Below, piece after piece: positions 18,471-60,442 of a stretch of 64,000 nucleotides of DNA. Source of the stretch: Bordetella pertussis 18323 (GTDB lineage Bacteria > Pseudomonadota > Gammaproteobacteria > Burkholderiales > Burkholderiaceae_B); contig NC_018518.1 in the NCBI RefSeq assembly GCF_000306945.1, forward strand, positions 1,178,001-1,242,000, written 5' to 3'. The notes beneath the pieces are model-generated. The model was given only the letters and a program-made list of their open reading frames with translations. It was not told the DNA's origin and made no database searches. The position numbers were made by a program, and so were the translations under genes. Every line of letters begins with the position of its first letter. Position 1 is the stretch's first letter.

Positions 18471-18567
18471 CCGGCCGGGCTCCTTGAGTGAACTGGGGGG
18501 TTGGCGATTTCCAGTTTCTCAAATCCGGTTCGGATGAACCATGCATACAACCTATTGAATCTTCACA
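17525..18567 (-). mobile_element. IS481: IS481 copy 1, complete, with intact target duplication
   Basis: 1,043-bp element. Both ends start TGTGAA, then three differing bases, then the shared TCAATAGGTTGTAT, forming imperfect inverted repeats. It is flanked by identical 6-bp ACTAGC at 17519-17524 and 18568-18573, the NCTAGN duplication known for IS481, so this is an unrearranged insertion. It differs from copies 2 and 3 at 18502 (T instead of C on the + strand), in the short region upstream of the transposase gene. It separates nfeD from its SPFH partner. Confidence 0.97.
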
Positions 18568-18587
18568 ACTAGCAGAGGGTATTTATC

Positions 18588-26727: not shown

Positions 26728-27678
26728 CTAGCTGTGAACTGTCAATAGGTTGTATTCGTCCAGGTTGAGTCTGGAGATGGGTACAGCGCGCCCGATGCCT
26801 TGGTGGGGTCGATGCCAGTTGTAGTGGTGTAGCCAGGATTTCATGGCATCGGCTCGGTGTTGGGAGTTCTGGTAGGTGTGAGCGTAAGCCCACTCACGCA
26901 AGGCCGACTGGATGAAGCGTTCGGCCTTGCCATTGGTCTGTGGGCGGTAAGGTCGGGTAAAGCGGTGCTTGATGCCCAGCTCATGGCACAGCGCGGCGAA
27001 GGCGCGGCTGCGAAAGGCCGAGCCATTGTCGGTGAGCAAGCGCTGGATGGTCACGCCCAGGCGCTGGTAGTAGGCCACTGCGTCCTTGAGGAACTGGACG
27101 GCGCTGGGGAAGCGCTCGTCGGGGTGGATGTCGGTGAAGGCCACGCGGGCGTGGTCATCGATGGCCACGAAGACGAAGTCCCAGCCGGCCCCCTCAACGG
27201 TATCGCGTCGGTTGCCCGTGACCCGGTGGCCAGGGCGCTGGATACGTCCCAGCTTCTTGATGTCGATGTGCAGCAGATCGCCGGGGGCCTGATGCTCGTA
27301 GCGCACCACCGGCTCGGCCGGCTCCAGGTCGGCCAGGTGCGACAGACCGGCGCGGGCCAGGACGCGGCTGACGGTGCTGGCTGACACGCCCAGCGCCTGG
27401 GCGATGCGCGCTTGGGTCAGCCGCTTGCGGCGCAGCTCCACGATAGCCAGCGCCTTGGCCGGCGCAATCGCTCGGGGCGAGACCGTCGGGCGCGAGGACG
27501 CATCGGCCAAGCCCGCCTGGCCCTGAGCCAGGAAGCGGCCCAGCCATTTGCGCACAGTCGGCGCGGTGACCCCATAGGCGCGGGCCGCTTCAGGCACACA
27601 AACTTGATGGGCGATCAATTGCTGGACCATTTCGAGTCGACGTAGGAAGGTCAATCGGGCATGCTTATGGGTGTTCAT
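26728..27678 (-). CDS. IS481 transposase (copy 2)
   Basis: 316-aa transposase, identical in sequence to the copy 1 product, with the same HTH and DDE motifs. As in the other copies, the TAG stop (26728-26730 on the minus strand) is provided by the flanking CTAG, and the last residue is Ser. The reading frame is intact, so the element should still encode active transposase. Confidence 0.96.
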   Translation of the reverse strand: MNTHKHARLTFLRRLEMVQQLIAHQVCVPEAARAYGVTAPTVRKWLGRFLAQGQAGLADASSRPTVSPRAIAPAKALAIVELRRKRLTQARIAQALGVSASTVSRVLARAGLSHLADLEPAEPVVRYEHQAPGDLLHIDIKKLGRIQRPGHRVTGNRRDTVEGAGWDFVFVAIDDHARVAFTDIHPDERFPSAVQFLKDAVAYYQRLGVTIQRLLTDNGSAFRSRAFAALCHELGIKHRFTRPYRPQTNGKAERFIQSALREWAYAHTYQNSQHRADAMKSWLHHYNWHRPHQGIGRAVPISRLNLDEYNLLTVHS

Positions 27679-27775
27679 CCGGCCGGGCTCCTTGAGTGAA
27701 CTGGGGGGTCGGCGATTTCCAGTTTCTCAAATCCGGTTCGGATGAACCATGCATACAACCTATTGAATCTTCACA
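26733..27775 (-). mobile_element. IS481: IS481 copy 2, complete, mismatched flanks
   Basis: 1,043-bp element, same orientation as copy 1. The 6-bp flanks are CCTAGC on the left (26727-26732) and GCTAGG on the right (27776-27781). They share only the CTAG core, and both outer bases differ. A simple insertion should give identical NCTAGN repeats, so the two flanks most likely come from different insertion sites joined by recombination between IS481 copies. The right CTAG contains the stop codon of tal. Confidence 0.97.
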
Positions 27776-27776
27776 G

Positions 27777-28739
27777 CTAGGCCGCGCCGTGCGATTCGAT
27801 CAGCGCATCCAGCTTGCGCGCATCGGCCACGAACAGGCGGATGCCCTCGGACAGTTTCTCGCTGGCCATCGCGTCTTCGTTGAGCTGCGTACGGAACGCC
27901 ACCTCGCCGCCATCCAGGCGGACCGCGTCGGCGTCGTCATGGCCGGCCTGCGGCGACAGCGCGGCGGGCACCTCGCCCTCGGTCTGCGCCAGCCGGGTCA
28001 GCAGTTCCGGGCTGATCGTCAGCAGGTCGCAGCCGGCCAGCGCCAGGATCTGGTCCACGTTGCGGAAGCTGGCGCCCATGATCTCGGTCTCGATGCCGAA
28101 GCGCTTGTAATAGCGATAGATGCGGCTGACCGATTGCACGCCCGGATCGTTGGCGCCGCGGCGCGCATCCTCGACCCACTCGGCGCCGGCGTTCTTCTTG
28201 TGCCAGTCGTAGATGCGGCCGACGAACGGCGAGATCAGCTGCACGCCGGCGTCGGCGCAGGCCGCCGCCTGCGGCAGGCAGAACAGCAGCGTCAGGTTGC
28301 AGCGGATGCCCTCGGCCTGCAGCACGCGCGCGGCCTGGATGCCCTCCCAGGTGGAGGCGATCTTGATCAGCACCCGTTCGCGCGGCACGCCGGCCGCCTG
28401 GTACAGGGCGATCAGGCCGCGGGCGCGCTCGACCGTGGCGCGCGTGTCGAAGGACAGGCGCGCATCCACCTCGGTGGAGACCCGGCCCGGCACGATATCG
28501 AGGATCTGGCGGCCGAACGCGACCAGCAGGCGGTCGGTGATCTCGGCCGGCGAGGCGCCCTGGTGCGCGCGCGCCGTCTGGACCAGCAGCGGCCGGTACG
28601 CCTCTTGCTGCACGGCCTTGAGGATCAGCGAGGGGTTGGTGGTGGCGTCGGTGGGGCGCAGCGCACGCATCGCTTCGAAATCGCCGGTATCGGCAACGAC
28701 AACGGTATGGCGGCGCAACGCTTCGAGTTGGCTGGGCAT
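27777..28739 (-). CDS. tal: Transaldolase
   Basis: Pentose-phosphate enzyme transferring a dihydroxyacetone unit from sedoheptulose 7-P to glyceraldehyde 3-P. The 320-aa length is normal. Motifs: [30 protein letters not shown] (given as VVVADTGDF and [15 protein letters not shown]), the Schiff-base Lys region [37 protein letters not shown] and [17 protein letters not shown] at 28739 gives [14 protein letters not shown]; a longer in-frame start at 28760 is less likely. The TAG stop overlaps the IS481 target, yet the C-terminus ([11 protein letters not shown]) looks natural. Confidence 0.94.
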
Positions 28740-38858: not shown

Positions 38859-38879
38859 GGCGAGGCGGCGGCGCCTAGA

Positions 38880-39922
38880 TGTGAAGATTCAATAGGTTGT
38901 ATGCATGGTTCATCCGAACCGGATTTGAGAAACTGGAAATCGCCGACCCCCCAGTTCACTCAAGGAGCCCGGCCGGATGAACACCCATAAGCATGCCCGA
39001 TTGACCTTCCTACGTCGACTCGAAATGGTCCAGCAATTGATCGCCCATCAAGTTTGTGTGCCTGAAGCGGCCCGCGCCTATGGGGTCACCGCGCCGACTG
39101 TGCGCAAATGGCTGGGCCGCTTCCTGGCTCAGGGCCAGGCGGGCTTGGCCGATGCGTCCTCGCGCCCGACGGTCTCGCCCCGAGCGATTGCGCCGGCCAA
39201 GGCGCTGGCTATCGTGGAGCTGCGCCGCAAGCGGCTGACCCAAGCGCGCATCGCCCAGGCGCTGGGCGTGTCAGCCAGCACCGTCAGCCGCGTCCTGGCC
39301 CGCGCCGGTCTGTCGCACCTGGCCGACCTGGAGCCGGCCGAGCCGGTGGTGCGCTACGAGCATCAGGCCCCCGGCGATCTGCTGCACATCGACATCAAGA
39401 AGCTGGGACGTATCCAGCGCCCTGGCCACCGGGTCACGGGCAACCGACGCGATACCGTTGAGGGGGCCGGCTGGGACTTCGTCTTCGTGGCCATCGATGA
39501 CCACGCCCGCGTGGCCTTCACCGACATCCACCCCGACGAGCGCTTCCCCAGCGCCGTCCAGTTCCTCAAGGACGCAGTGGCCTACTACCAGCGCCTGGGC
39601 GTGACCATCCAGCGCTTGCTCACCGACAATGGCTCGGCCTTTCGCAGCCGCGCCTTCGCCGCGCTGTGCCATGAGCTGGGCATCAAGCACCGCTTTACCC
39701 GACCTTACCGCCCACAGACCAATGGCAAGGCCGAACGCTTCATCCAGTCGGCCTTGCGTGAGTGGGCTTACGCTCACACCTACCAGAACTCCCAACACCG
39801 AGCCGATGCCATGAAATCCTGGCTACACCACTACAACTGGCATCGACCCCACCAAGGCATCGGGCGCGCTGTACCCATCTCCAGACTCAACCTGGACGAA
39901 TACAACCTATTGACAGTTCACA
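38880..39922 (+). mobile_element. IS481: IS481 copy 3, complete, opposite orientation, mismatched flanks
   Basis: 1,043-bp element inverted relative to copies 1 and 2. Flanks are CCTAGA (38874-38879) and ACTAGC (39923-39928): same CTAG core, both outer bases different, so no true target duplication. The two sides probably came from separate sites by recombination. Undoing a simple inversion between copies 2 and 3 does not restore matching flanks either, so copies outside the window must be involved. Confidence 0.97.
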
Positions 39923-39927
39923 ACTAG
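38977..39927 (+). CDS. IS481 transposase (copy 3)
   Basis: 316-aa transposase identical to copies 1 and 2 except the final residue, Asn instead of Ser. That codon (AAC) and the TAG stop at 39925-39927 are built from the flanking ACTAGC, so the difference is a read-out of the insertion site and not a mutation in the element. Confidence 0.96.
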   Translation: MNTHKHARLTFLRRLEMVQQLIAHQVCVPEAARAYGVTAPTVRKWLGRFLAQGQAGLADASSRPTVSPRAIAPAKALAIVELRRKRLTQARIAQALGVSASTVSRVLARAGLSHLADLEPAEPVVRYEHQAPGDLLHIDIKKLGRIQRPGHRVTGNRRDTVEGAGWDFVFVAIDDHARVAFTDIHPDERFPSAVQFLKDAVAYYQRLGVTIQRLLTDNGSAFRSRAFAALCHELGIKHRFTRPYRPQTNGKAERFIQSALREWAYAHTYQNSQHRADAMKSWLHHYNWHRPHQGIGRAVPISRLNLDEYNLLTVHN

Positions 39928-40062
39928 CCGGAGTCAAGGGCAAAATCTGCCACAAATAGCCCATTCGATTGGGACTGAATCATGCATAATTTCGTGGCAA
40001 TACGTACAAATAGGAGAAGCGGTGTCTGAAGCCGGGCGCTGTACTCGCGAATAGGGGGCTCA

Positions 40063-48377: not shown

Positions 48378-50468
48378 ATGACTACTTTGATCTGCGATTG
48401 CAATCGCACGATGCCGCTGCAGCCCGAGGCATTGGGCCAGGCGCTCGGCGAAACGCTGACACTGCACTCCACCTTGTGCCGCCGCGAAGCCGGCGCATTC
48501 CAGGCGGCCATCCGCGACGGCCAGGACGTGGTCGTCGCCTGTACCCAGGAAAAACGCCTGTTCGGCGAGCTGGGCGGCGCCACGCAAGGCGCGGTGTCGC
48601 CGGTGCGCTTCGTCAACATCCGCGAGACCGGCGGCTGGAGCCGCGACGCCGCCCAGGCCATGCCCAAGCTGGCCGCCTTGCTGGCGGCCGCGCACCTGCC
48701 CGAACCCGATCCGGTCGCCACCGTGACGTACAAGAGCGGCGGCCGCCTGCTGATCATCGGCTCGCTGGACCAGGCCGAGCAGGCCGCGGCCTTGCTGGAC
48801 GACGTGCTCGATGTCACGTTGTTCGGCCAGGGGCCGGGCCGCGCGGGCGGCGCCCAGGAGCGCCGCTACCCCGTGCTGAGCGGACGCATCGACAGCCTGC
48901 AGGGCTGGCTGGGCGCGTTCGAGTTGCGCTGGACCCGCGGCAACCCGATCGACCTGGACCTGTGCACGCGCTGCAACGCCTGTATTAGCGCTTGTCCGGA
49001 CGGCGCCATCGGCCTGGACTACCAGGTCGACACGGCCCGATGTACCTCGCACCGGGCCTGCGAGCAGGCCTGTACCGTGGCGGGCGCGATCGATTTCTCG
49101 CGTTCGCCGGAAAACTTCACCGACCAATACGACCTGGTGCTGGACCTGGGCGGCACGCCGCTGTTCACCCAGCACGCGCCGCCGCAGGGCTATTTCGCCT
49201 GGGGTGGCCAGGCGCCCGCGACCTTGCTGCGTTTGCGCGAGCTGGTCGGCGAATTCGAAAAGCCCAAATTCTTCGACTACCGCCAGCAACTGTGCGCGCA
49301 TAGCCGCAACGAAACCGTCGGCTGCCGCGCCTGTATCGATATCTGCTCGGCGCGCGCCATCAGCAGCGACAGCCACCACCAGCGCATCGTCGTCAATCCC
49401 AGCCTGTGCGTCGGGTGCGGGGCCTGCACCACCGTCTGCCCCAGCGGCGCGTTGACCTACACCTATCCGCGCGCGACCGACCAGGGCTCGAAGCTGCGCA
49501 CGCTGCTGGCGACCTACGCCAAGGCCGGCGGCCAGGACGCGATGCTGCTGCTGCACAGCCAGCAGGAGGGCGCACGCCTGGTCGAGCAACTCGGCCGCCA
49601 GGCGGCGCTCAAGCAGGCCGATGGCGTGCCGGCCAACGTCATCCCGATGGCGCTGTGGCACACGGCCAGCGTCGGGCTGGACCTGTGGCTGTCGGCGGTG
49701 GCGTTCGGCGCGCGCCACATCGCCGTGCTGACCACCGCCGAAGAGGCGCCGCAATACCTGGAGGGCCTGCAGGCACAATTCGCGCAGGCGCAGGCCATCC
49801 TGAACGGGCTGGGCTATGCGGGCATCCACCTGAGCCTGGTGCCGGCCGATACGCCGCAGGCGCTCGATGCCGCGCTGCGGCAGTTGGCGCCCGCCCAGGG
49901 GCCGGCCGTGGCGGCGCGCCATGCGGTCGTGCAGGAAAAGCGCAGCACGCTGGACCTGGCGCTGGATCACCTGGTGGCGCATGCCCCGGCGCCCGCGCCC
50001 GAGAGCATCGCGCTGCCGGCCGGCGCGCCGGGCGCGGGAGCGCCATTCGGCACCGTGGCCGTCGACAGCGACGCCTGTACCTTGTGCATGAGCTGCGTCA
50101 GCGCCTGTCCGTCCAACGCCTTGCTGGACAACCCGCAGTCGCCGCAATTGCGCATGGTCGAGAAGAACTGCGTGCAGTGCGGCCTGTGCGCCACCACCTG
50201 TCCCGAGAACGCCATCACGCTGGTGCCGCGCCTGCTGCTTGCGCCGCGGCGCCGCGAAGCCGTGGTCCTCAACGAAAGCGCGCCGTTCCATTGTGTGCGC
50301 TGCAACAAGGCTTTCGGCACCCAGAAGGGGGTCGAAGCCATGCTGGGCCGCCTGGGCGGCCACGCCATGTTCCAGGGCGCGGCGCTGGAACGGCTGAAAA
50401 TGTGCGGCGACTGCCGCGTGATCGATCTGTATTCCGCCGAAAACGAAACCCGGATCACCGACCTATGA
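48378..50468 (+). CDS. Large multi-cluster 4Fe-4S ferredoxin of the formate dehydrogenase cluster
   Basis: 696-aa protein with many Cys clusters: CTRCNACISACPDGAIGLDY, CTSHRACEQAC, CRACIDICSARAISS, CVGCGACTTVCPSGALTY, CTLCMSCVSACPSNALLD and CVQCGLCATTCPENAI. Two CxxC pairs follow near the C-terminus (CVRCNKAFG, CGDCRVIDL). It lacks a signal peptide, so it should act in the cytoplasm as an electron relay, perhaps from the formate dehydrogenase or during its maturation. Such proteins sit beside DUF3305/DUF3306 and TorD genes. ATG at 48378; overlaps the chaperone gene by four bases. Confidence 0.85.
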   Translation: MTTLICDCNRTMPLQPEALGQALGETLTLHSTLCRREAGAFQAAIRDGQDVVVACTQEKRLFGELGGATQGAVSPVRFVNIRETGGWSRDAAQAMPKLAALLAAAHLPEPDPVATVTYKSGGRLLIIGSLDQAEQAAALLDDVLDVTLFGQGPGRAGGAQERRYPVLSGRIDSLQGWLGAFELRWTRGNPIDLDLCTRCNACISACPDGAIGLDYQVDTARCTSHRACEQACTVAGAIDFSRSPENFTDQYDLVLDLGGTPLFTQHAPPQGYFAWGGQAPATLLRLRELVGEFEKPKFFDYRQQLCAHSRNETVGCRACIDICSARAISSDSHHQRIVVNPSLCVGCGACTTVCPSGALTYTYPRATDQGSKLRTLLATYAKAGGQDAMLLLHSQQEGARLVEQLGRQAALKQADGVPANVIPMALWHTASVGLDLWLSAVAFGARHIAVLTTAEEAPQYLEGLQAQFAQAQAILNGLGYAGIHLSLVPADTPQALDAALRQLAPAQGPAVAARHAVVQEKRSTLDLALDHLVAHAPAPAPESIALPAGAPGAGAPFGTVAVDSDACTLCMSCVSACPSNALLDNPQSPQLRMVEKNCVQCGLCATTCPENAITLVPRLLLAPRRREAVVLNESAPFHCVRCNKAFGTQKGVEAMLGRLGGHAMFQGAALERLKMCGDCRVIDLYSAENETRITDL

Positions 50469-51094
50469 ACGTATCCGTCACTTTCGCCTCCATCGCCGCC
50501 CCGGGCTTCGACGAAGAGGTCGCCCGCGCCGAGATCTACGGGCTGCTGGCGCAGCTGTACTATGCGCCGCCGCCGTCCGACCTGCTTGCGCAGCTGCGCG
50601 CCGCGCCCAGGCAGGCGCCCGACCAGGGCGGCTTTCTCGAGGCCTCGTGGCAGGCGCTGGTTGCCTGCGCGGCCGAGATGGGCGATGACGCGGTGCGGGC
50701 CGAATACGACGCTTTGTTCGGCGGCGTCGGCAAGCCCGATATCTACCTCTTCGCCTCGCACTACCTGACGGGCTTCCTGAACGAAAAGCCGCTGGTGGGG
50801 CTGCGCGACGACCTGGCCGCGCTGGGCCTGCGGCGCGACGCGGCCATGTCCGAGACCGAGGACCACATCGCCTATCTGTGCGAGGTGATGCGCTACCTGA
50901 TCGCCGGCGATGATGTCGCCGTGGCCAATCTGACGCAGCAGCGCCAGTTCCATGCGCGCCACCTGCGGCCCTGGATCGCGGATTTGTGCGATGCGATCGC
51001 GGCCCATCCCGCGGCGCGCTTCTACGGCGCGCTGGCCGAATTCACCCGCGCGTTCTTCAGCGTGGAGGCCCAGGCCTTCGACATGATGGCCTGA
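50465..51094 (+). CDS. TorD/DmsD-family molybdoenzyme chaperone
   Basis: 209-aa all-helical chaperone expected to bind the Tat signal of the formate dehydrogenase alpha subunit until cofactor is loaded. Features: RAEIYGLLAQLYYAPPPSDL, EYDALFGGVGKPDIYLFASH, YLTGFLNEKPLVGLRDDLAA and EDHIAYLCEVMRYLI, typical of the TorD family (the LFxG..KPDI..YLTG pattern). Overlap with the ferredoxin gene implies coupling; a possible promoter separates it from the structural genes. Confidence 0.85.
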   Translation: MNVSVTFASIAAPGFDEEVARAEIYGLLAQLYYAPPPSDLLAQLRAAPRQAPDQGGFLEASWQALVACAAEMGDDAVRAEYDALFGGVGKPDIYLFASHYLTGFLNEKPLVGLRDDLAALGLRRDAAMSETEDHIAYLCEVMRYLIAGDDVAVANLTQQRQFHARHLRPWIADLCDAIAAHPAARFYGALAEFTRAFFSVEAQAFDMMA

Positions 51095-51245: not shown

Positions 51246-51455
51246 ATGTCGCAACGTCAACCCAACTTGTCGCGTCGTGCGTTCTTCGCCGGCGCAGCGA
51301 CGGTAGGCGCCGCCGCTGTCGGTGCGACCGTGCTTCCCGGCGCGCGGCCCGAGGCGTCCGGCGAGTCGGCTGCGGCCGCCAAGCCGCCCGCGGCAGGAGG
51401 CGGCTACCGCCTGAGCGAACACGTCAAGCGCTACTACAAAACCACCCTCGTTTGA
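51246..51455 (+). CDS. Small Tat-signal protein of the formate dehydrogenase region
   Basis: 69-aa protein: LSRRAFFAGAATVGAAAVGA is a twin-arginine signal (Arg10-Arg11), followed by a Pro/Ala-rich linker and a short conserved tail YRLSEHVKRYYKTTLV. Such mini-proteins regularly precede formate dehydrogenase alpha genes; they may be a small subunit or export partner, but the function is unproven. GGAAGGAG at 51233-51240 places the start at 51246. Fourteen bases separate it from fdhA. Confidence 0.85.
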   Translation: MSQRQPNLSRRAFFAGAATVGAAAVGATVLPGARPEASGESAAAAKPPAAGGGYRLSEHVKRYYKTTLV

Positions 51456-51469
51456 TACCGGAGCCCGGC

Positions 51470-54439
51470 ATGTTGCTGACCAAGAAAACCAGCGGAGCCG
51501 CTGCGGGCGCCTCCGAGTCGCACTTCATCCAGAGCCTGCGCCGCGGCATGGCGCAAGCGCTGCCCACGATGGACCGCCGCACCTTCCTGCGCCGCTCGGG
51601 CCTGGGTGTGGGCGCCGGCCTGGCCGCCACCCAGCTGTCGCTGGTCAAGCGCGCCGAAGCCGCCGAAGGCGATGGCAAGGTGGCCATCGGCAATACCAAG
51701 ATCGAAGTCCGCCGCACGGTCTGTACGCACTGTTCGGTGGGCTGTGCCGTCGACGCCGTGGTCGAGAACGGCGTCTGGGTGCGCCAGGAGCCGGTGTTCG
51801 ATTCGCCCATCAACCTGGGCGCGCACTGTGCCAAGGGCGCCTCCGTGCGCGAGCACGGGCACGGCGAGCACCGCCTGCGCTATCCCATGAAGCTGGTCAA
51901 CGGCAAGTACCAGCGCATCAGCTGGGATACCGCGTACGAGGAAATCACCGCCAAGCTGATGCAGTTGCGCAAGGAAAGCGGGCCCGACTCGGTCTACTGG
52001 ATCGGCTCGTCCAAGCACAACAACGAGCAGTCGTACCTGCTGCGCAAGTTCGTCAGCTTCTGGGGCAGCAACAACTGCGACCACCAGGCGCGTATCTGCC
52101 ACTCGACCACGGTGGCCGGCGTTGCGAATACATGGGGCTACGGCGCCATGACCAATTCGTACAACGACATGCAGAACTCCAAGGTGGCGCTGTACATCGG
52201 CTCGAACGCCGCCGAGGCCCACCCGGTCTCGATGCTGCACATGCTGCACGCCAAGGAAACCGGCTGCAAGATGATCGTGGTGGACCCGCGCTTTACCCGT
52301 ACGGCGGCCAAGGCCGACCAGTACGTGCGCATCCGCTCCGGCACCGATATTCCGTTTTTGTTCGGCCTGCTGTACCACATCTTCAAGAACGGCTGGGAAG
52401 ACCAGGCGTACATCGACGCGCGCGTCTACGGCATGGATGAGGTCAAGGCCGACATCCTGGCCAAGTGGTCGCCGGACAAGGTCGAGGAAGCCTGTGGCGT
52501 GGACGAGGCCACGATGTATTCGGTGGCCAAGACCATGCACGAGAACCGGCCCGGCACGCTGGTGTGGTGCATGGGCCAGACCCAGCACTCCATCGGCAAC
52601 GCCATGGTGCGCGCTTCCTGCATCGTGCAGCTGGCGCTGGGCAACGTCGGCAAGTCCGGCGGCGGCGCCAACATTTTCCGCGGCCACGACAACGTGCAGG
52701 GCGCCACCGACGTGGGCCCCAACCCCGACTCGCTGCCGGGCTACTACGGCCTGGCCGAAGGTTCCTGGAAGCACTTCGCCAACACCTGGGGCGTGGACTA
52801 CGAGTGGATCAAGGGCCGCTACGCGTCGCCGGCCATGATGACCAAGCCGGGCATCACCGTGTCGCGCTGGATCGACGGCGTGCTCGAGAACCCCGACCTG
52901 ATCGACCAGGACACCAACCTGCGCGCCGTGTTCTATTGGGGACACGCGCCCAACTCGCAGACGCGCGGGCTGGAAATGAAGCGGGCCATGGACAAGCTGG
53001 ACCTGCTGGTGGTGGTCGACCCGTATCCGTCGGCGACCGCGGCGATGGCCGCCATGCCGGGCAAGGCCGAAGACCTCAACCCCAACCGGGCGGTCTACCT
53101 GCTGCCGGCCGCGACGCAGTTCGAGACCAACGGCAGCTGTACCGCTTCCAACCGTTCGCTGCAATGGCGCGAGAAGGTCATCGATCCGCTGTGGGAGAGC
53201 CGCACCGACCACATGATCATGCATCAGCTGGCCGAGAAACTTGGCTTTGGCAAGGAGCTCAGCAAGAACTACAAGATGCAGAAGGTCAAGGGCATGGACG
53301 AGCCCGTGGTCGAGGACATCCTGCGCGAGATCAATGCCTCGGTCTGGGCCATCGGCTACACGGGCCAGAGCCCCGAGCGCCTGAAGGCCCACATGCGCAA
53401 CATGCACGTGTTCGACGTCAAAACGCTGCGCGCCAAGGGCGGCAAGGACGCCGAGACCGGCTACGACCTGACCGGCGACTACTTCGGCCTGCCGTGGCCA
53501 TGCTGGGGCAATCCCAGCCTCAAGCATCCCGGCACCGCCAACCTGTACGACACCAGCCTGCACGTGATGGACGGCAGCGGCAACTTCCGCGCCAACTTCG
53601 GCGTCGAGCGCAACGGCGTCAACCTGCTGGCGGCCGACGGCTCGCACTCCAAGGGCGCCGACCTGACCACCGGGTATCCCGAGTTCGACCACGTGCTGCT
53701 CAAGAAACTGGGCTGGTGGGAGGACCTGACGCCGGAAGAGCAGAAGGCCGCCGAAGGCAAGAACTGGAAGACCGACCCGTCGGGCGGCATCATCCGCGTG
53801 ACCATGAAGGTGCACGGCTGCCATCCGTTCGGCAACGCGCGGGCGCGCGCCGTGGTGTGGAACTTCCCCGACGCCATTCCGCAGCACCGCGAGCCGATCT
53901 ACGGCACGCGCCCGGACCTGGTCGCCAAGTACCCCACGCACAACGACCTCAAGACGTTCTGGCGCCTGCCCACGCTGTATACCTCCTTGCAGCAGAAGAA
54001 CGTTGCCGAGAAGCTGTACGAGAAGTTCCCGATCATCCTGACCTCGGGCCGCCTGGTCGAGTACGAGGGCGGGGGCGAGGAAACCCGCTCCAACCCCTGG
54101 CTGGCCGAACTGCAGCAGGAGAGCTTCGTCGAGCTCAACCCCAAGGCGGCGGCCGATCGCGGCATCCGCAACGGCGACCGGGTGTGGGTCCTGACGCCGA
54201 CCGGCGCGCGCCTGAACGTGCAGGCCCTGGTGACCGAGCGGGTCGGCCCCGATACGGCTTTCATGCCGTTCCACTTCTCGGGTCACTGGCAGGGCGTGGA
54301 CATGCTGGCCAGCTATCCGGAAGGCGCGGCGCCCATCGTGCGCGGCGAAGCGGTCAACACGGGCACCACGTACGGCTACGACTCCGTGACGATGATGCAG
54401 GAAACCAAGACCACGATCTGCAACATAGAAAAGGCCTGA
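51470..54439 (+). CDS. fdhA: Formate dehydrogenase, molybdenum/tungsten-bis-MGD alpha subunit (Cys type)
   Basis: 989-aa catalytic subunit oxidising formate to CO2, exported by Tat: MDRRTFLRRSGLGVGAGLAA with Arg36-Arg37. The N-terminal 4Fe-4S site is CTHCSVGC (Cys85, 88, 92) plus AHCAKGAS (Cys120). The metal ligand position is ARICHSTTVAGVANTWGYGA, where Cys210 (TGC) replaces selenocysteine, followed by the catalytic His. MGD-binding segments include WCMGQTQHSIGNAM and HFSGHWQGVDM. The length and motifs appear intact, but its beta subunit gene is broken, so membrane-coupled activity is doubtful. Confidence 0.94.
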   Translation: MLLTKKTSGAAAGASESHFIQSLRRGMAQALPTMDRRTFLRRSGLGVGAGLAATQLSLVKRAEAAEGDGKVAIGNTKIEVRRTVCTHCSVGCAVDAVVENGVWVRQEPVFDSPINLGAHCAKGASVREHGHGEHRLRYPMKLVNGKYQRISWDTAYEEITAKLMQLRKESGPDSVYWIGSSKHNNEQSYLLRKFVSFWGSNNCDHQARICHSTTVAGVANTWGYGAMTNSYNDMQNSKVALYIGSNAAEAHPVSMLHMLHAKETGCKMIVVDPRFTRTAAKADQYVRIRSGTDIPFLFGLLYHIFKNGWEDQAYIDARVYGMDEVKADILAKWSPDKVEEACGVDEATMYSVAKTMHENRPGTLVWCMGQTQHSIGNAMVRASCIVQLALGNVGKSGGGANIFRGHDNVQGATDVGPNPDSLPGYYGLAEGSWKHFANTWGVDYEWIKGRYASPAMMTKPGITVSRWIDGVLENPDLIDQDTNLRAVFYWGHAPNSQTRGLEMKRAMDKLDLLVVVDPYPSATAAMAAMPGKAEDLNPNRAVYLLPAATQFETNGSCTASNRSLQWREKVIDPLWESRTDHMIMHQLAEKLGFGKELSKNYKMQKVKGMDEPVVEDILREINASVWAIGYTGQSPERLKAHMRNMHVFDVKTLRAKGGKDAETGYDLTGDYFGLPWPCWGNPSLKHPGTANLYDTSLHVMDGSGNFRANFGVERNGVNLLAADGSHSKGADLTTGYPEFDHVLLKKLGWWEDLTPEEQKAAEGKNWKTDPSGGIIRVTMKVHGCHPFGNARARAVVWNFPDAIPQHREPIYGTRPDLVAKYPTHNDLKTFWRLPTLYTSLQQKNVAEKLYEKFPIILTSGRLVEYEGGGEETRSNPWLAELQQESFVELNPKAAADRGIRNGDRVWVLTPTGARLNVQALVTERVGPDTAFMPFHFSGHWQGVDMLASYPEGAAPIVRGEAVNTGTTYGYDSVTMMQETKTTICNIEKA

Positions 54440-54449
54440 GGAGATTGCC

Positions 54450-55077
54450 ATGGCTCGAATGAAATTTGTCTGTGATGCAGAGCGCTGTATCGAATGCAAT
54501 GCCTGCGTGACGGCGTGCAAGAACGAGCACGAAGTCCCCTGGGGCGTGAACCGCCGCCGCGTGGTGACGCTCAACGACGGCGTGCCCGGCGAGAAGTCCA
54601 TTTCGGTGGCCTGCATGCACTGCAGCGACGCGCCCTGCATGGCGGTGTGCCCGGTCCTGCTTCTACCGCACCGACGAGGGTGTGGTGCTGCACAACAAGG
54701 ACACCTGTATCGGCTGCGGCTACTGTTCGTACGCCTGTCCGTTCGGCGCGCCGCAGTTCCCCTCCGAAGGGGCCTTCGGCGTGCGTGGCAAGATGGACAA
54801 GTGCACGTTCTGCGCCGGCGGGCCGGAAGAGCACGGCAGCGCAGAGGAGTTCGAAAAGTATGGCCGCAACCGGCTGGCCGAGGGCAAGCTGCCGGCCTGC
54901 GCCGAAATGTGTTCGACCAAGGCGCTGCTGGCCGGCGACGGCGACGTGGTGGCCGACATCTTCCGCACCCGCGTGATCCATCGCGGCAAGGGCGCGGAAG
55001 TCTGGGGCTGAGGCACCGCCTATGGCTCCAAGCAGGCCGGGCAGCCGCCGGCCGCCGACGCCAAGGCCAAGCCATGA
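54450..55077 (+). pseudogene. fdhB: Formate dehydrogenase iron-sulfur (beta) subunit, frameshift plus premature stop
   Basis: About 209-aa 4Fe-4S electron-transfer subunit. The first part reads FVCDAERCIECNACVTACKN and SVACMHCSDAPCMAVCPV, then shifts frame between 54656 and 54657 where family logic expects CPVDCFYRTDEG. The rest resumes in the +1 frame (FYRTDEGVVLHNKDTCIGCG, YCSYACPFGAPQFPSEGAFG, KCTFCAGGPEEH). A second lesion, TGA at 55009-55011, replaces an expected Trp in VWGWGTAYG. Reading on, the frame ends at TGA 55075-55077, overlapping the next ATG by four bases, the likely original end. Confidence 0.9.
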
Positions 55078-55307
55078 AGACGAATCCGCGCCTTCTCCTG
55101 ATCGCAGCGGCCGCCGTGTTCGGCCTGGCCGCCTGCACCGAAAAACCGCAGGAGCTGCATTCCGGCGTCGTGGGCAAGCCTGCCTATGACGGCACGGGCA
55201 GCAATTTCGTCGCTCCGGGCTGGAAGCAGGGCGACAAGAACAGTTGGCAGCAAGAGTTGAAAGTTCGCGCCCAACGGGGCCAGAACGAGTACACCCGGGT
55301 CAACTGA
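55074..55307 (+). CDS. Small lipoprotein of the formate dehydrogenase operon
   Basis: 77-aa protein with a lipoprotein signal (LLLIAAAAVFGLAAC, lipobox LAAC, Cys about residue 21). A short polar mature part contains GKPAYDGTGSNFVAPGWKQG and SWQQELKVRAQRGQNEYTRV. It lies between beta and gamma subunit genes, overlapping the ancestral beta-subunit stop by four bases. It is probably a periplasmic accessory anchored to a membrane; the function is unknown. It is in the same frame as the fdhB start, which can misleadingly fuse the two. Confidence 0.82.
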   Translation: MKTNPRLLLIAAAAVFGLAACTEKPQELHSGVVGKPAYDGTGSNFVAPGWKQGDKNSWQQELKVRAQRGQNEYTRVN

Positions 55308-55319
55308 GCGGAGGTCGCC

Positions 55320-56477
55320 ATGATACGGTCACTGTTCGCGGCGCTGCTGGCAAGCGCCCTGCTGGCGACGGCGGGGGCGCAGACTGCCGCGCCGTCCGCC
55401 GGCGCGCCCGCCATGGGCGGCATCCAGAGCGCCAATATCTTCGAGGTCAAGCCCGACGCCAGCGAGCAGCCGGGCTATGCCGAGCAGACCAATGCCGAAC
55501 GCGCCAAGGTGCAGCCGGGCAACAATGCGCCCATGTGGCGGCAGGTCAACTCGGGCCAGCCCGGCTACAGCAGCCTGCCGGCCAGCGAGGCCCCCGAAGC
55601 CGGCGTGCTGATCCAGCGTTTCGTCCAGTATCCCGGCTCGCAGTACACCACGGCCGGCGAGGCCTGGCGCCAGGTGCGCAACAACTGGCTCATCCCGTAC
55701 GGCGGCGGCCTGCTGCTGATCGTGCTGGTGGCGATCGCGCTGTTCTTCCTGGCCAAGGGGCCGATGAAGCTGCGCGAGGCCGAGACCGGCCGCCGCATCG
55801 AGCGCTTCACGTACTTCGAGCGCGCCGCGCACTGGGTCAACGCCACGGCCTTCGTCATCCTGGCGCTGACGGGCATCGTCATCGCGTTCGGCAAGTTCTT
55901 CCTGCTGCCCATCATGGGCAGCGCGGCGTTCGGCTGGATGACGTGGCTGCTCAAGACCGTGCACAACTTCGTGGGTCCCGTGTTCGCGGTGTCGCTGCTG
56001 GTGGTCATCCTGACCTTCATCAAGGACAACCTGCCGCGCCGCGACGACCTGATCTGGTTGCGCAAGGGCGGCGGCCTCATCACCGGCGCGCACGTGCCTT
56101 CGCATCGCTTCAATGCCGGCGAGAAGATCATGTTCTGGGTCGGCATGCTGTTCCTGGGCGCGCTGGCGGTGGCCTCGGGCCTGTTCCTGGACCAGGTGTT
56201 CCCGGGCCTGTCGTACGTGCGCGGCAACATGCAGATCGCCCATATGGTGCATGCCGCGTCGGTCGTCCTGATGATGTGCATGATCATGGGGCACATCTAC
56301 CTGGGCACCATCGGCATGCGTGGCGCCTTCAAGGCCATGAAGACCGGCTATGTCGATGAAACGTGGGCGCGCGAGCACCACGAGCTGTGGTACGACGATA
56401 TCAAGGCGGGCAAGATTCCCGCCCAGCGCACGCCCGACAAATCGGCCAAGCGGCTGACCCGTCCGGCGGGCGCCTGA
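55320..56477 (+). CDS. fdhC: Formate dehydrogenase gamma subunit (cytochrome b)
   Basis: 385-aa membrane anchor that takes electrons from the beta subunit to quinone. It has a cleavable signal (LFAALLASALLATAGA), a periplasmic region of about 90 residues (MWRQVNSGQPGYSSLPASEA), then a helix (LLLIVLVAIALFFLA). The b-type cytochrome domain contains ERFTYFERAAHWVNATAFVI, TWLLKTVHNFVGPVFAVSLL, IAHMVHAASVVLMMCMIMGH and IYLGTIGMRGAFKAMKTGYV; His residues in these helices are haem-ligand candidates. The gene looks intact. Confidence 0.9.
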   Translation: MIRSLFAALLASALLATAGAQTAAPSAGAPAMGGIQSANIFEVKPDASEQPGYAEQTNAERAKVQPGNNAPMWRQVNSGQPGYSSLPASEAPEAGVLIQRFVQYPGSQYTTAGEAWRQVRNNWLIPYGGGLLLIVLVAIALFFLAKGPMKLREAETGRRIERFTYFERAAHWVNATAFVILALTGIVIAFGKFFLLPIMGSAAFGWMTWLLKTVHNFVGPVFAVSLLVVILTFIKDNLPRRDDLIWLRKGGGLITGAHVPSHRFNAGEKIMFWVGMLFLGALAVASGLFLDQVFPGLSYVRGNMQIAHMVHAASVVLMMCMIMGHIYLGTIGMRGAFKAMKTGYVDETWAREHHELWYDDIKAGKIPAQRTPDKSAKRLTRPAGA

Positions 56478-56499: not shown

Positions 56500-56874
56500 A
56501 TGAAAAAGATTGCCGCGTTGATCATCGCCCTGGCCGCCGCGCCGGCCCTGGCCAAGCTGCCGCCGCCTACGCCCGAGGCCGCGGCCAAGGCCAAGGAGAC
56601 CGCGGCCAAGGCGGCCTGGTCGGGAAAAATGGATGCCTTCCGGCTGTGCCGCGTGCAGGACGAGGTGGCGGCGACTTACTTCGAGCGGGCCAAGGCGGCC
56701 GGCAAGACGACCCGCGCGCCCATGGCCACGCCCGAGTGCAAGGATCCGGGGCCGTTCGTCTACAACGTGGAAGACAAGCCGCGCGAGGCGGCGGGGGCGC
56801 ATTCGCCGGCCGATACGGCGGCCAAGCCGCCCAGTTCTCCCGCGCCGGCTGCCGAACAGAAGCCCGGCCAGTAG
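56500..56874 (+). CDS. Small exported protein of unknown function at the end of the formate dehydrogenase operon
   Basis: 124-aa protein with a signal peptide (KKIAALIIALAAAPALAKLP) and a mature part AAWSGKMDAFRLCRVQDEVA, ATYFERAKAAGKTTRAPMAT, PECKDPGPFVYN. It has two Cys (RLCRV, PECKD), then a Pro/Ala tail. It starts 22 bases after the gamma subunit gene with AGGAGGCACC before the ATG. I do not recognise a family; the position suggests a periplasmic helper. Confidence 0.75.
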   Translation: MKKIAALIIALAAAPALAKLPPPTPEAAAKAKETAAKAAWSGKMDAFRLCRVQDEVAATYFERAKAAGKTTRAPMATPECKDPGPFVYNVEDKPREAAGAHSPADTAAKPPSSPAPAAEQKPGQ

Positions 56875-56907: not shown

Positions 56908-58023
56908 TCAGGCCGGGCGCGTGCGCCGGACCTTCTTGCGCGCGAAATCCCACCAGGGCAGCACGCGCCGCATCGACAGTACCTGCCCGGTCTGGGCCGG
57001 CGCATAGCCGGGAATGGCCGCCAGCGTGGCCTGCCAGGCCGGACTGCGCAGGATGGACAGCAGCGCCTGCGTGGAGGGCTGGTCCAGCGTCGATTTCAGG
57101 CACACCAGGAAATAGTTCTCGCGCACCAACGGAATGAAATCCAGCCGCTCGCGGTGCGCCGCCGGCTCGATACCCAGGCCGGCATCGGCGCTGCCCGAGA
57201 CAATGGCGTGGGCGACCGCCGCGTGCGAAGGCTCGGTGCGCTCGTAGCCGGCGATGGCCGCGGGTTTCAGCCCGGCCCGTTCCAGCAGCTCGTCGAACAG
57301 CACCCGGGTCCCGGTGCCCAGCGCGCGGTTCACATAGCGCACGCCGGAGGCGGCCAGGTCGGCCAGGGACGTGATGCCGTGCGGGTTGCCGCGCGCCACG
57401 ATCAGCCCCTGGCTGCGCTGCGCGAAGCCGATGATCTTGTGCAGGCCGGGCTGCAGCATGGGCTTGTAGGTGCGCTCGGCCAGCGAGCCCGGTTCCGGCG
57501 CTTCGCGGGTGTGAAAGCCTGCCATGACGCAGCGCCCTTCGTTCAGGGCGCTGATGGCGTCCACGCTGCCGGTGAAGCGGATGTCCAGGTGCAGCTTGGC
57601 GCTGGCCACCGCGTGCTCGCGCAGCGCCTGCAGCGCGTTGTCGTGGCTGGCGTACAGGGGCACGACGTGGGCGGCGTCGTCGAAGGCCACCGCGAACGCG
57701 CGCTCGAGGTCGGCGCGCAAGGCATTGATCTGCGGCGCCAGGCGCGCCTGCGCCTGGCGCTCGGCCCACAGCAGCTTCTCGCCGAACTCGTTGAGCCGCG
57801 CCGGCTGGCCCTTGTCCCAGACGATCAGGGTGCGGCCCAGGGTCTGTTCCCATTTTTTCAGCTCGCCCCACACATGGCGGTACGACAGGTCCAGCGCCTT
57901 GGCGGCGGCCGAAATCGAACCGTGCTCGCGCACGGCCGACAGCAGGTCCATCAACGCGTTGCGCAGCAAGGCGGGGCGGGGGTCGCTCGGACCCAGGGAA
58001 TAGGAGATCTCGATGTGGCGCAC
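56908..58023 (-). CDS. ModE-like HTH regulator fused to a periplasmic-binding-like domain
   Basis: 371-aa protein. The N-terminal ModE/LysR-type winged helix (residues ~18-85) has AVREHGSISAAAKALDLSYR and HVWGELKKWEQTLGRTLIVW. The C-terminal PBP-like sensor domain has ALNEGRCVMAGFHTREAPEP, LIVARGNPHGITSLADLAAS, VRYVNRALGTGTRVLFDELL and SGSADAGLGIEPAAHR. It lies between the formate dehydrogenase operon and the divergent tup genes, so it may respond to tungstate/molybdate or cofactor status. GTG at 58023 (MRHIEISYSLG) is preferred over ATG at 58113, whose extra 30 residues are Cys/Arg-rich. Confidence 0.78.
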   Translation of the reverse strand: MRHIEISYSLGPSDPRPALLRNALMDLLSAVREHGSISAAAKALDLSYRHVWGELKKWEQTLGRTLIVWDKGQPARLNEFGEKLLWAERQAQARLAPQINALRADLERAFAVAFDDAAHVVPLYASHDNALQALREHAVASAKLHLDIRFTGSVDAISALNEGRCVMAGFHTREAPEPGSLAERTYKPMLQPGLHKIIGFAQRSQGLIVARGNPHGITSLADLAASGVRYVNRALGTGTRVLFDELLERAGLKPAAIAGYERTEPSHAAVAHAIVSGSADAGLGIEPAAHRERLDFIPLVRENYFLVCLKSTLDQPSTQALLSILRSPAWQATLAAIPGYAPAQTGQVLSMRRVLPWWDFARKKVRRTRPA

Positions 58024-58186
58024 GCGGCAAGTATGCCCGAAATGCGGGGCTTGCTGCGGGCGCCGGCGGCAGGCCGTTTCCGTGGCGACAGGCTTGCTTC
58101 CATCCCTATGCAATTCTGTTCATATGGCCGGGCCCGCGGCCCTGCGATACGCTCCGGCAATTAACAAAATGAAGTAAGCGAATACA

Positions 58187-58926
58187 TTGTCAGAGAGCCT
58201 TGCGATTGCGCTGCGTCTGATCGTGTCCGGCGATCCGGTCCTGATGGCCATCGTGGGACGCTCGCTGGCGGTCAGCGCGACGGCCTGTGTCCTGGCCTGT
58301 CTCATCGGCATGGCGGCAGGCGGGTGGCTGGGCGTTGCGCGCTTTCGCGGCCGCGGCATCGTGCTGACGCTGCTCAACACCTCGCTGGCGCTGCCTTCCG
58401 TGGTGGTCGGGCTGGCCATCTACCTGCTGCTTTCGCATTCCGGCCCGTTGGGCTTTCTCGGCTGGCTGTTCTCGTTCAAGGCCATGGTGGTGGCGCAGAC
58501 CATCCTGGTCGTTCCCATCGTCACGGCGCTGGTGCGCCAGACCATCGAGGACGCCGAGCGCCACCATGGCGAACAACTGCGTTCGCTCGGCGCGCGGCCG
58601 GGCATGCTGAGCCTGCTGCTGCTGTGGGACGAGCGCTTCACCTTGCTGACCATCGTCATCACGGCGTTCGGCCGCGCGGTGTCGGAGGTCGGCGCCGTGA
58701 TGGTGGTCGGCGGCAACATCGACGGCTATACCCGCGTGATGACCACCGCCATCGCGCTGGAAACCAGCAAGGGCGATCTGCCGCTTGCCATGGCCCTGTG
58801 GGCATGCTGCTGCTGCTGGTGGTGCTGCTGCTCAATATCCTGGCCGCGCTGGTGCGGCGCTGGCGCCTGCGCCGCGATACGGGCCTGGCCGGCCTGTATG
58901 GCCGGCACGCGCGGGGCATGGCATGA
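58187..58926 (+). pseudogene. tupB: Tungstate ABC transporter permease, frameshifted before the last membrane helix
   Basis: Inner-membrane permease of the TupABC type: SESLAIALRLIVSGDPVLMA, TSLALPSVVVGLAIYLLLSH, and the cytoplasmic coupling loop EQLRSLGARPGMLSLLLLWD, then FGRAVSEVGAVMVVGGNIDG. After codon 204 (CTG at 58796) the frame shifts. The shifted frame gives the expected last helix and tail, GMLLLLVVLLLNILAALVRR, stopping at 58926, where the stop overlaps the tupC ATG. One missing G or an extra TG explains it. The unshifted frame loses this helix (becoming Cys/Trp-rich) and runs on without a stop into tupA. TTG start at 58187. Confidence 0.85.
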
Positions 58927-59627
58927 CGGTGCTGTTCGACCTGCGTGGCGCCGACGTCTACTACGGCCCGGTGCATGCCCTGCGGGCGGCCGAACTGCGC
59001 ATCTGCGCCGGCGAACAGGTGGCGCTGGTCGGCGCCAATGGCAGCGGCAAGAGCACCTTGCTGCGCCTGTTGCACGGGCTGGTGACGCCGCGCGCGGGCC
59101 AGGCGCGATGCGCGGCGCGCGCGCGCCAGGCCATGGTGTTCCAGCAGCCCTACATGCTGCGCACTTCGGCGCAGAACAACGTGGCCCTGGCGTTGTGGCT
59201 GCGCGGCATGCGCTGGCGCGACGCGCGCGCGCGGGCGCTGCATGCCCTGGAGCGCGTCGAGCTGATCGAGCTGGCCGGCCGCAACGCCAAATCCATGTCG
59301 GGCGGCCAGCAACAGCGCCTGGCGCTGGCGCGCGCCTGGGCGCTGGAGCCCGAAGTGCTGCTGCTGGACGAACCGACTGCCAGCCTCGACCCCCATGCCA
59401 AGCGCGACGTCGAATTGCTGATGGAGCAGTTCGCGCGGCCGCGCGACGGGCTTGCGCCGGCCATGATCTTCAGCAGCCACAACCTGGGCCAGGTCAAGCG
59501 CCTGGCCCGGCGCGTCATCTACCTCGAGCGCGGCCGGATCCTGGCCGACCTGCCGGTGGACCAGTTTTTCAACGGGCCGCTGCCCGAAGCGGCGGCATTG
59601 TTCGTCAAGGGAGAACGCATACCATGA
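58923..59627 (+). CDS. tupC: Tungstate ABC transporter ATP-binding protein
   Basis: 234-aa ATPase powering tungstate import. Walker A VGANGSGKSTLLRLLHG, Q-loop QAMVFQQPYMLRTSAQNNVA, signature SMSGGQQQRLALARAWA, Walker B VLLLDEPTASLDPHAKRDVE and switch His in IFSSHNLGQVKRLARR. All are intact. ATG at 58923 overlaps the tupB stop, and its own TGA overlaps the tupA ATG, as in a coupled operon. With tupB broken, its membrane partner may be lost. Confidence 0.9.
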   Translation: MTVLFDLRGADVYYGPVHALRAAELRICAGEQVALVGANGSGKSTLLRLLHGLVTPRAGQARCAARARQAMVFQQPYMLRTSAQNNVALALWLRGMRWRDARARALHALERVELIELAGRNAKSMSGGQQQRLALARAWALEPEVLLLDEPTASLDPHAKRDVELLMEQFARPRDGLAPAMIFSSHNLGQVKRLARRVIYLERGRILADLPVDQFFNGPLPEAAALFVKGERIP

Positions 59628-60442
59628 AAATCCTCAACGCAATCCGCCGCGGGCTGGCGCTGGCCGGCCTGGCCACCGTGCTGGCCGCGCCGCTGGCGGC
59701 GCGGGCCGAGACCATCGTCATGGCCTCCACCACCTCGACCGAGCAATCAGGCCTGTTCGGACACCTGTTGCCGGCCTTCAAGAAGGCCAGCGGCATCGAC
59801 ATCAAGGTCGTGGCCCAGGGCACCGGCCAGGCGCTGGACATGGCGCGGCGCGGCGACGCCGATGTGCTGTTCGTGCACGACCAGGTGGCCGAGGAGAAAT
59901 TCGTGGCCGACGGATACGCGGTCAAGCGCTACCCGGTCATGTACAACGATTTCATCCTGGTCGGTCCGGCCAAGGACCCGGCCGGCGTCAAGGGCAACGA
60001 CATCGTCGCCGCGCTGGGCAAACTGGCCAAGGACAACGCCGACTTCATCTCGCGCGGCGACAAGAGCGGCACGCATGCGGCCGAACTGCGGTTCTGGAAG
60101 CAGACCGGCTCGGACAGCAAGGGCAGCGGCTACAAGGAATGCGGCTGTGGCATGGGGCCGGCGCTGAACATGGGCTCGTCGATGAACGCCTATGTGCTTT
60201 CCGATCGGGGCACCTGGCTCAGTTTCAAGAATCCGGGCGAGCTGAAGATCCTGGTCGAGGGCGACAAGCGCCTGTTCAACCAGTATGGCGTGATGGTGGT
60301 CAATCCGGCCAAGTTCCCGCACGTCAAGGCCAAGGCCGCGCAGCAGTTCGTCGACTGGGTTACCTCCAAGGCGGGCCAGGACGCGATCGCCAGCTACCAG
60401 GTCAATGGCCAGCAGTTGTTCTTTCCCAACGCCGACAAATGA
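59624..60442 (+). CDS. tupA: Tungstate ABC transporter substrate-binding protein
   Basis: 272-aa periplasmic protein with signal peptide (LALAGLATVLAAPLAARA). The mature part opens ETIVMASTTSTEQSGLFGHL; the TTST segment matches the oxyanion-binding loop of TupA proteins. It continues VVAQGTGQALDMARRGDADV, DFISRGDKSGTHAAELRFWK and YVLSDRGTWLSFKN. TupA binds tungstate very tightly and discriminates against molybdate. Overlaps tupC by four bases. Three stem-loops follow. Confidence 0.9.
   Translation: MKILNAIRRGLALAGLATVLAAPLAARAETIVMASTTSTEQSGLFGHLLPAFKKASGIDIKVVAQGTGQALDMARRGDADVLFVHDQVAEEKFVADGYAVKRYPVMYNDFILVGPAKDPAGVKGNDIVAALGKLAKDNADFISRGDKSGTHAAELRFWKQTGSDSKGSGYKECGCGMGPALNMGSSMNAYVLSDRGTWLSFKNPGELKILVEGDKRLFNQYGVMVVNPAKFPHVKAKAAQQFVDWVTSKAGQDAIASYQVNGQQLFFPNADK

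What the first reader, a model, noticed from the sequence alone, without database searches (positions are those of the whole stretch)
54450..55077. Formate dehydrogenase beta subunit gene carries two independent lesions
The frame breaks between 54656 and 54657 exactly where CPVDCFY is expected (missing two bases). In the resumed frame TGA at 55009 replaces the Trp of VWGWGTAYG. Continuing past that TGA gives 22 more codons and a stop overlapping the next gene's ATG by four bases, which shows where the gene used to end. Two lesions argue against a single sequencing error and for real loss of function. The alpha and gamma subunits and chaperone remain intact.
Basis: partly seen in the sequence, partly recalled or inferred. 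Interest (0 to 1): 0.72.

Follow-up and report, generated by a model that had tools for sequence, protein, structure and literature searches.

The report
Broken formate dehydrogenase beta-subunit pseudogene
The gene for the electron-carrying subunit of a formate-oxidising enzyme looks truly broken in this whooping-cough bacterium, and a helper protein that such enzymes are known to need was not found in its genome, so this is probably one more abandoned metabolic pathway in a shrinking genome.

Summary
The window lies in a 4,043,846-bp genome, the published size of Bordetella pertussis 18323. The gene at 54450-55077 encodes FDH3-type formate dehydrogenase beta, with a frameshift at 54656/54657 and an in-frame TGA at 55009-55011. 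It is uninterrupted at both sites in 80 of 80 relatives examined; no intact second copy was found.

The lesions are not equal. A database cluster listed on 1000 contigs (longest 4.16 Mb) holds the downstream part as a separate 130-aa gene with an internal start and Trp at the TGA position. So the frame break looks widespread, the TGA later and local.

Alpha, gamma and chaperone are open, as stated, but damage extends further. The neighbouring tupB-like permease gene is frameshifted at about 58798. FdhD, a maturation factor, was not found, though 14 of 14 other genomes of the genus match it. Where three relatives have fdhD near a regulator gene, an IS481 element borders that regulator here.

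Verdict: an ordinary pseudogene in a strain with 369 annotated ones, inside a probably dead formate module.

The parts
54450..54656 (+). fdhB (FDH3 beta), 5' piece, 69 codons up to the frame break; carries the first 4Fe-4S ferredoxin motifs
   Evidence: NCBIfam FDH3_beta NF038355 positions 1-68/180, E 4.4e-36; Pfam Fer4_9 and Fer4_7
54656..54657 (+). frameshift (net two bases short against relatives)
   Evidence: 80 of 80 relatives examined have no break; tblastn changes frame here; database protein P0124 shares it
54657..55008 (+). fdhB 3' piece in the resumed frame up to the TGA; its mechanical ORF runs from GTG 54682
   Evidence: FDH3_beta positions 78-179/180, E 6.3e-56 for 54682-55008
55009..55011 (+). 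in-frame TGA where 80 of 80 relatives have Trp; cuts off 22 residues including the conserved WGTAYG
   Evidence: not in database proteins P0236 and P0124
55075..55077 (+). original stop, overlapping the next start codon (55074-55076)
   Evidence: relatives' proteins align to 55071-55074
54450..55307 (+). 285-codon open frame as it stands: 69 true codons, then off-frame, then in frame with the small downstream gene
50465..51094 (+). TorD-family chaperone, 209 aa, open
   Evidence: Pfam PF02613 E 2.6e-25; TIGR03482 and TorD hits below their cut-offs
51246..51455 (+). small formate dehydrogenase region TAT-target protein, 69 aa
   Evidence: TIGR02811, 42.4 bits, under its cut-off of 48.45
51470..54439 (+). 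fdhA, molybdopterin-containing alpha subunit, 989 aa, open
   Evidence: 94% identical end to end to L017; TIGR01591 467.6 bits, below its cut-off of 666.25
55074..55307 (+). small lipoprotein-like gene, 77 aa, no family match
   Evidence: found in 6 of 6 relatives compared; no Pfam or NCBIfam hit; lipoprotein is a reading by eye
55320..56477 (+). fdhC, cytochrome b gamma subunit, 385 aa, open
   Evidence: TIGR01583 E 3.6e-50, above cut-off
56500..56874 (+). small conserved protein of the operon, 124 aa
   Evidence: found in 6 of 6 relatives compared
56908..58113 (-). probable one-hybrid regulator, open
   Evidence: 74-79% identical in 4 of 6 relatives compared (L017, L018, L019, L030). It was not family-scanned itself; a similar gene beside the fds site (L135:6953-8056) has HTH_1 and PBP_like domains
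58187..58925 (+). tupB-like tungstate ABC permease gene, frameshifted at about 58798-58800
   Evidence: piece before the break: TupB NF041773 positions 8-207/230, 168.5 bits under a cut-off of 320; general permease model NF038017 222.3 bits, over its cut-off of 100; 4 of 4 relatives with the gene in the fetched stretch have an open frame of 242-244 aa
58923..59627 (+). tupC-like ABC ATPase, 234 aa, open
   Evidence: PF00005 E 1.3e-29
59624..60442 (+). tupA-like tungstate-binding protein, 272 aa, open
   Evidence: NF041772 E 1.8e-68, 230.8 bits, below its cut-off of 400

Best explanation
The gene is a true pseudogene of fdhB, the iron-sulfur subunit that would carry electrons from the molybdopterin alpha subunit to the cytochrome b gamma subunit of a membrane-bound, FDH3-type formate dehydrogenase. 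Shown: the frameshift parts the first ferredoxin motifs from the later ones, no uninterrupted beta frame was found in the genome, and the frame break recurs in a database allele. Inferred: no full beta subunit is made, so alpha has no path to the quinone pool and the enzyme is dead. The TGA came later, in a gene already dead. The enzyme would probably be dead even with a beta subunit, because no FdhD was found to mature the alpha cofactor, and the neighbouring tungstate-type permease gene is also broken. The formate module as a whole is thus probably decaying.
For: Relatives are uninterrupted at both sites, 80 of 80 examined. Genome search gives only the two broken pieces plus one weak 38%-identity hit. 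P0124 shares the break and 40 off-frame residues. P0236, a 130-aa fragment gene with internal start, is listed on 1000 contigs, longest 4,162,738 bp. FdhD is not found here but is matched in 14 of 14 other genus genomes, one of them (G012, incomplete) only in part, and in 7 of 7 genomes with FDH3 beta over cut-off. IS481 borders the regulator near which three relatives have fdhD. tupB-like frameshift. R. capsulatus FDH made without FdhD and FdsC is described as completely inactive (PMC12140954, passages).
Against: Alpha, gamma, chaperone and the tupA- and tupC-like genes are still open. Alpha departs at only 4 of 568 near-invariant columns (79 relatives), so decay is young or alpha has another use. 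No activity data. The database names no species for P0124 and P0236; it is inferred from sequence identity and contig length. FdhD is also missing in 7 other genomes of the 61, and in one FDH3-bearing genome (G026) the fdhD match holds stops, so FdhD loss alone is not unique. Damage to 2 of about 12 local genes is no more than the genome-wide pseudogene rate predicts (P = 0.33). Tungstate specificity is uncertain, since TupA and the TupB piece score below their cut-offs.
Confidence: 0.9

Rival explanations
1. Sequencing or assembly error: the break, the TGA or both are artefacts of a finished genome sequenced at low depth.
For: The strain was sequenced at about 6-fold coverage by Sanger reads (PMC3533505, passages). 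The TGA is not seen in P0124 or P0236, so the TGA alone could be an error.
Against: The frame break is shared by P0124 down to the off-frame residues and is implied by the fragment gene listed on 1000 contigs.
Confidence: 0.04
2. Recoding: a programmed frameshift at 54656 and stop readthrough at 55009 still give a full beta subunit.
For: The downstream part keeps a recognisable FDH3_beta match (189.3 bits), so it has not decayed far.
Against: None of the 80 relatives examined has a frame break there, so there is no conserved recoding site. Two separate recoding events would be needed. Young age explains the good match.
Confidence: 0.02
3. Split gene: the downstream piece is made from its own GTG start as a small ferredoxin and still does something, alone or with the upstream piece.
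For: It is held in the database as a 130-aa protein listed on 1000 contigs; the window's piece has Fer4 matches; a GAGG stretch precedes the GTG codons.
Against: The window strain has since lost 22 conserved residues. None of the 80 relatives examined has a split form.
Confidence: 0.04

Closest known systems
FDH3-type formate dehydrogenase beta subunit (NCBIfam NF038355)
   Same: Both pieces match it as best hit, together covering positions 1-68 and 78-179 of 180; same gene order as in 6 of 6 relatives compared
   Different: Not one reading frame; neither piece reaches the 240-bit cut-off; 22 residues of the C-terminus cut off
Pseudogenes of Bordetella pertussis
   Same: Frameshift and stop in a gene intact elsewhere; 369 pseudogenes and 3746 predicted CDSs in strain 18323 (PMC3533505, passages)
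   Different: Nothing in kind; I did not see whether this gene is in that published set
IS481-associated gene loss in B. pertussis
   Same: Four lost loci were flanked by IS481 in published work (PMC1975675, passages); here an IS481 borders the regulator near which relatives have fdhD
   Different: The deletion was not reconstructed: a gene from the other side of fdhD in G010 maps about 2 Mb away, with another IS481 within 0.9 kb of it, so rearrangement is involved. The comparison is with other species of the genus, not with B. bronchiseptica

Membership tests
FDH3 formate dehydrogenase beta (NF038355) | score above the curated cut-off of 240 bits | tested here: not met
   124.6 and 189.3 bits for the two pieces
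FDH3 formate dehydrogenase beta (NF038355) | one continuous open frame of about 200 aa | tested here: not met
   frame break and TGA; 80 of 80 relatives examined have 196-218 aa
FDH3 formate dehydrogenase beta (NF038355) | gene between fdhA and fdhC | tested here: met
   order alpha, beta, small gene, gamma as in 6 of 6 relatives compared
FDH3 formate dehydrogenase beta (NF038355) | transfers electrons from alpha to gamma | not testable with these tools
   needs enzyme assay
Pseudogene | disrupted where orthologues are intact | tested here: met
   80 of 80 relatives examined
Pseudogene | lesion seen in independent assemblies | tested here: inconclusive
   frame break: shared by P0124, implied by P0236, sources not named; TGA: not seen in either
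Pseudogene | no intact copy elsewhere in the genome | tested here: met
   at E <= 0.001
Pseudogene | no functional product | not testable with these tools
   no proteome or activity data
Tungstate permease TupB (NF041773) | score above 320 bits in one frame | tested here: not met
   168.5 bits to position 207 of 230 for the piece before the break; the relatives' TupB-like proteins were not scanned

The most novel reading that the evidence does not exclude
One IS481-mediated deletion removed the fds genes and with them fdhD, the only maturation factor for both formate dehydrogenases of the ancestor. That disabled the membrane-bound enzyme at a distance, and its beta subunit and the neighbouring tungstate-type permease then decayed: a loss that spread through a shared maturation factor rather than through the genes themselves.
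Probability: 0.25. Interest if true: 0.45.

Novelty: new member of a known kind. Interest (0 to 1): 0.3.

Why it matters
Pseudogenes are common in this species, so the single gene is unremarkable. What adds value is that separate lesions (fdhB, the tupB-like gene, and the absence of fdhD and fds genes) fall on the same chemistry. Together they predict that this strain oxidises formate by neither route, and the order of loss could be dated across strains. It also warns against reading the 130-aa fragment as a real ferredoxin, or the intact fdhA and fdhC as proof of formate respiration.

Tried and rejected
Looked for an intact paralogue of beta and other formate dehydrogenases. The other alpha-like hits are NuoG, a BisC/TorA-like enzyme and a molybdopterin oxidoreductase with an FAD domain; the last reaches 210.8 bits with the Fdh-alpha model against 467.6 for the window's alpha, and only its stretch inside the fetched locus was scanned. 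Since even the window's alpha is under that model's cut-off, I call these 'not formate dehydrogenase' by ranking, not by cut-off. No RNA family match in the window.

Literature for this gene in Bordetella: the searches listed no paper whose title or shown start of abstract treats it. The word formate does not occur in the main text of PMC1975675 or PMC3533505. In PMC9976334 it occurs only as a chromatography reagent. One paper lists formate dehydrogenase large subunits among k-mer categories tied to macrolide resistance (PMC13084545, one passage), not followed up. Supplements were not seen.

Rejected: statistical clustering of local lesions (P = 0.33 for 2 or more of 12 genes). That test counts about 12 genes by eye and leaves out the distant fds-fdhD loss. 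In one search alpha used 79 of 80 relatives (one dropped by a filter) and gamma only the 13 of 80 that my motif found, so the gamma count (15 of 197 near-invariant columns differ) is weak.

Full report
Setting. The window is G000:C1:1178001-1242000 of a one-contig genome of 4,043,846 bases. That is the size given for Bordetella pertussis 18323 in PMC3533505 (passages), which also gives 369 pseudogenes for that strain, 359 for Tohama I, 357 for CS and 12 for B. bronchiseptica RB50, and about 6-fold Sanger coverage for 18323. The strain name is therefore an inference from size.

The observation. The gene at 54450 opens with 69 codons of FDH3 formate dehydrogenase beta. The frame breaks at 54656/54657, resumes in another frame, meets TGA at 55009-55011, and would have ended at TGA 55075-55077, overlapping the next start codon. 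The pieces match NCBIfam FDH3_beta at 1-68 and 78-179 of 180, with E 4.4e-36 and 6.3e-56. tblastn with the relatives L017, L018 and L030 shows the same change of frame. In the 80 relatives examined, which are the best 80 kept of 595 confirmed loci, the gene is one frame of 196-218 aa, unbroken after CPV and with Trp at the TGA position. The first-stage coordinates are right; the tail after the TGA is 21 sense codons, not 22. As it stands the first frame runs on for 285 codons through the next small gene, so a ribosome that starts at fdhB would not meet a stop until 55307.

Age of the two lesions. Two database proteins inform this. P0124 (208 aa, 14 member sequences) is identical to the window through the break and 40 off-frame residues, then returns to the original frame and ends normally with Trp at the TGA position. 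P0236 (130 aa, 10 member sequences, listed on 1000 contigs, which may be a cap; longest contig 4,162,738 bases) is the downstream part alone, with an internal start, also with Trp. An intact gene would be called full length, so P0236 implies an upstream lesion in those assemblies. That it is the same break is inferred from P0124. Neither listing names a source. A longest contig of 4.16 Mb fits B. pertussis (4.04-4.12 Mb) better than B. parapertussis (4.77-4.89 Mb) or B. bronchiseptica (5.09 Mb and more) by the sizes in PMC3533505. So the frame break looks widespread and the TGA private to the window lineage, though the TGA alone could still be a sequencing error.

The rest of the locus. Alpha (989 aa, 94% identical to L017), gamma, the chaperone and the small operon genes are open. 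Downstream, a tupB-like gene changes frame at about 58798-58800: its piece matches TupB at 8-207 of 230, under the cut-off, and a general permease model over its cut-off, while the four relatives that hold the gene in the fetched stretch have open frames of 242-244 aa. The tupA- and tupC-like genes are open. TupA scores under its cut-off too, so tungstate as the substrate is probable, not shown.

The rest of the genome. No other beta was found, and the other hits of the Fdh-alpha model look like other enzymes. FdhD (PF02634) was not found in this genome (the control search rang in 8 of 14 named genomes). Among 61 genomes searched, 53 have it, including 14 of 14 others of the genus, one of them (G012, 73% complete) with a partial match; the 8 misses are this genome and 7 others. 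All 7 genomes with FDH3_beta over cut-off have it, although in one (G026) the fdhD match holds stops. Among 15 genomes of the genus only this one and G010 have an FDH3 beta; two of the others are 73 and 77% complete. Two loci whose records are labelled Bordetella, L018 and L030, also have it. The other genus members thus probably keep FdhD for another formate dehydrogenase. In G008 the genes are FdsA-like (TIGR01591, 924 bits) and FdhD; the corresponding stretches of G010 and G011 align with it and hold the FdhD matches. In all three this run starts near a regulator gene. In the window genome, homology with these stretches stops at L135:8070-8075, just past the regulator, and an IS481 element begins at about 8089; beyond it there is no homology to them (IS481 domain). 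Against a simple deletion: a gene from the other side of fdhD in G010 maps about 2 Mb away, with another IS481 within 0.9 kb. E. [quoted passage not shown] capsulatus FDH made without FdhD and FdsC is described as completely inactive (PMC12140954, passages).

Interpretation. Shown: a broken fdhB, a broken tupB-like gene, and no FdhD match. Inferred: no working FDH3, and probably no formate oxidation by the fds route either. The order of events is open. Local clustering of lesions is not significant (P = 0.33) given that about a tenth of all genes in this strain are pseudogenes, so shared decay of the module is plausible but not proven.

Limits. The nearest sister species could not be compared directly; strain-level spread rests on database clusters without named sources; no expression or activity data were available here.

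Noticed in passing
window 58187-58925: A tupB-like tungstate permease gene is frameshifted at about 58798-58800 while the tupC- and tupA-like genes stay open
   Followed up: yes
L135:6953-9141 (G000:C1 about 2,752,950-2,755,140): IS481 borders a regulator gene near which three relatives have fdhD and, in the one scanned, fdsA; no FdhD match in this genome
   Followed up: partly
window 54450-55307: The frameshifted frame of fdhB stays open for 285 codons and runs in frame into the small gene at 55074
   Followed up: partly
window 17520-18572, 26728-27780, 38872-39932: Three IS481 copies, 99.5-99.7% identical to the one at the fds site
   Followed up: no
P0124: A database allele with the same break and a second shift about 120 bases on, giving a protein of nearly normal length with a garbled middle that lacks the third ferredoxin motif (motif by eye)
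   Followed up: partly
Bordetella genomes G000-G014: Only 2 of 15 genomes of the genus searched carry an FDH3 beta gene, so the enzyme is patchy in the genus
   Followed up: partly
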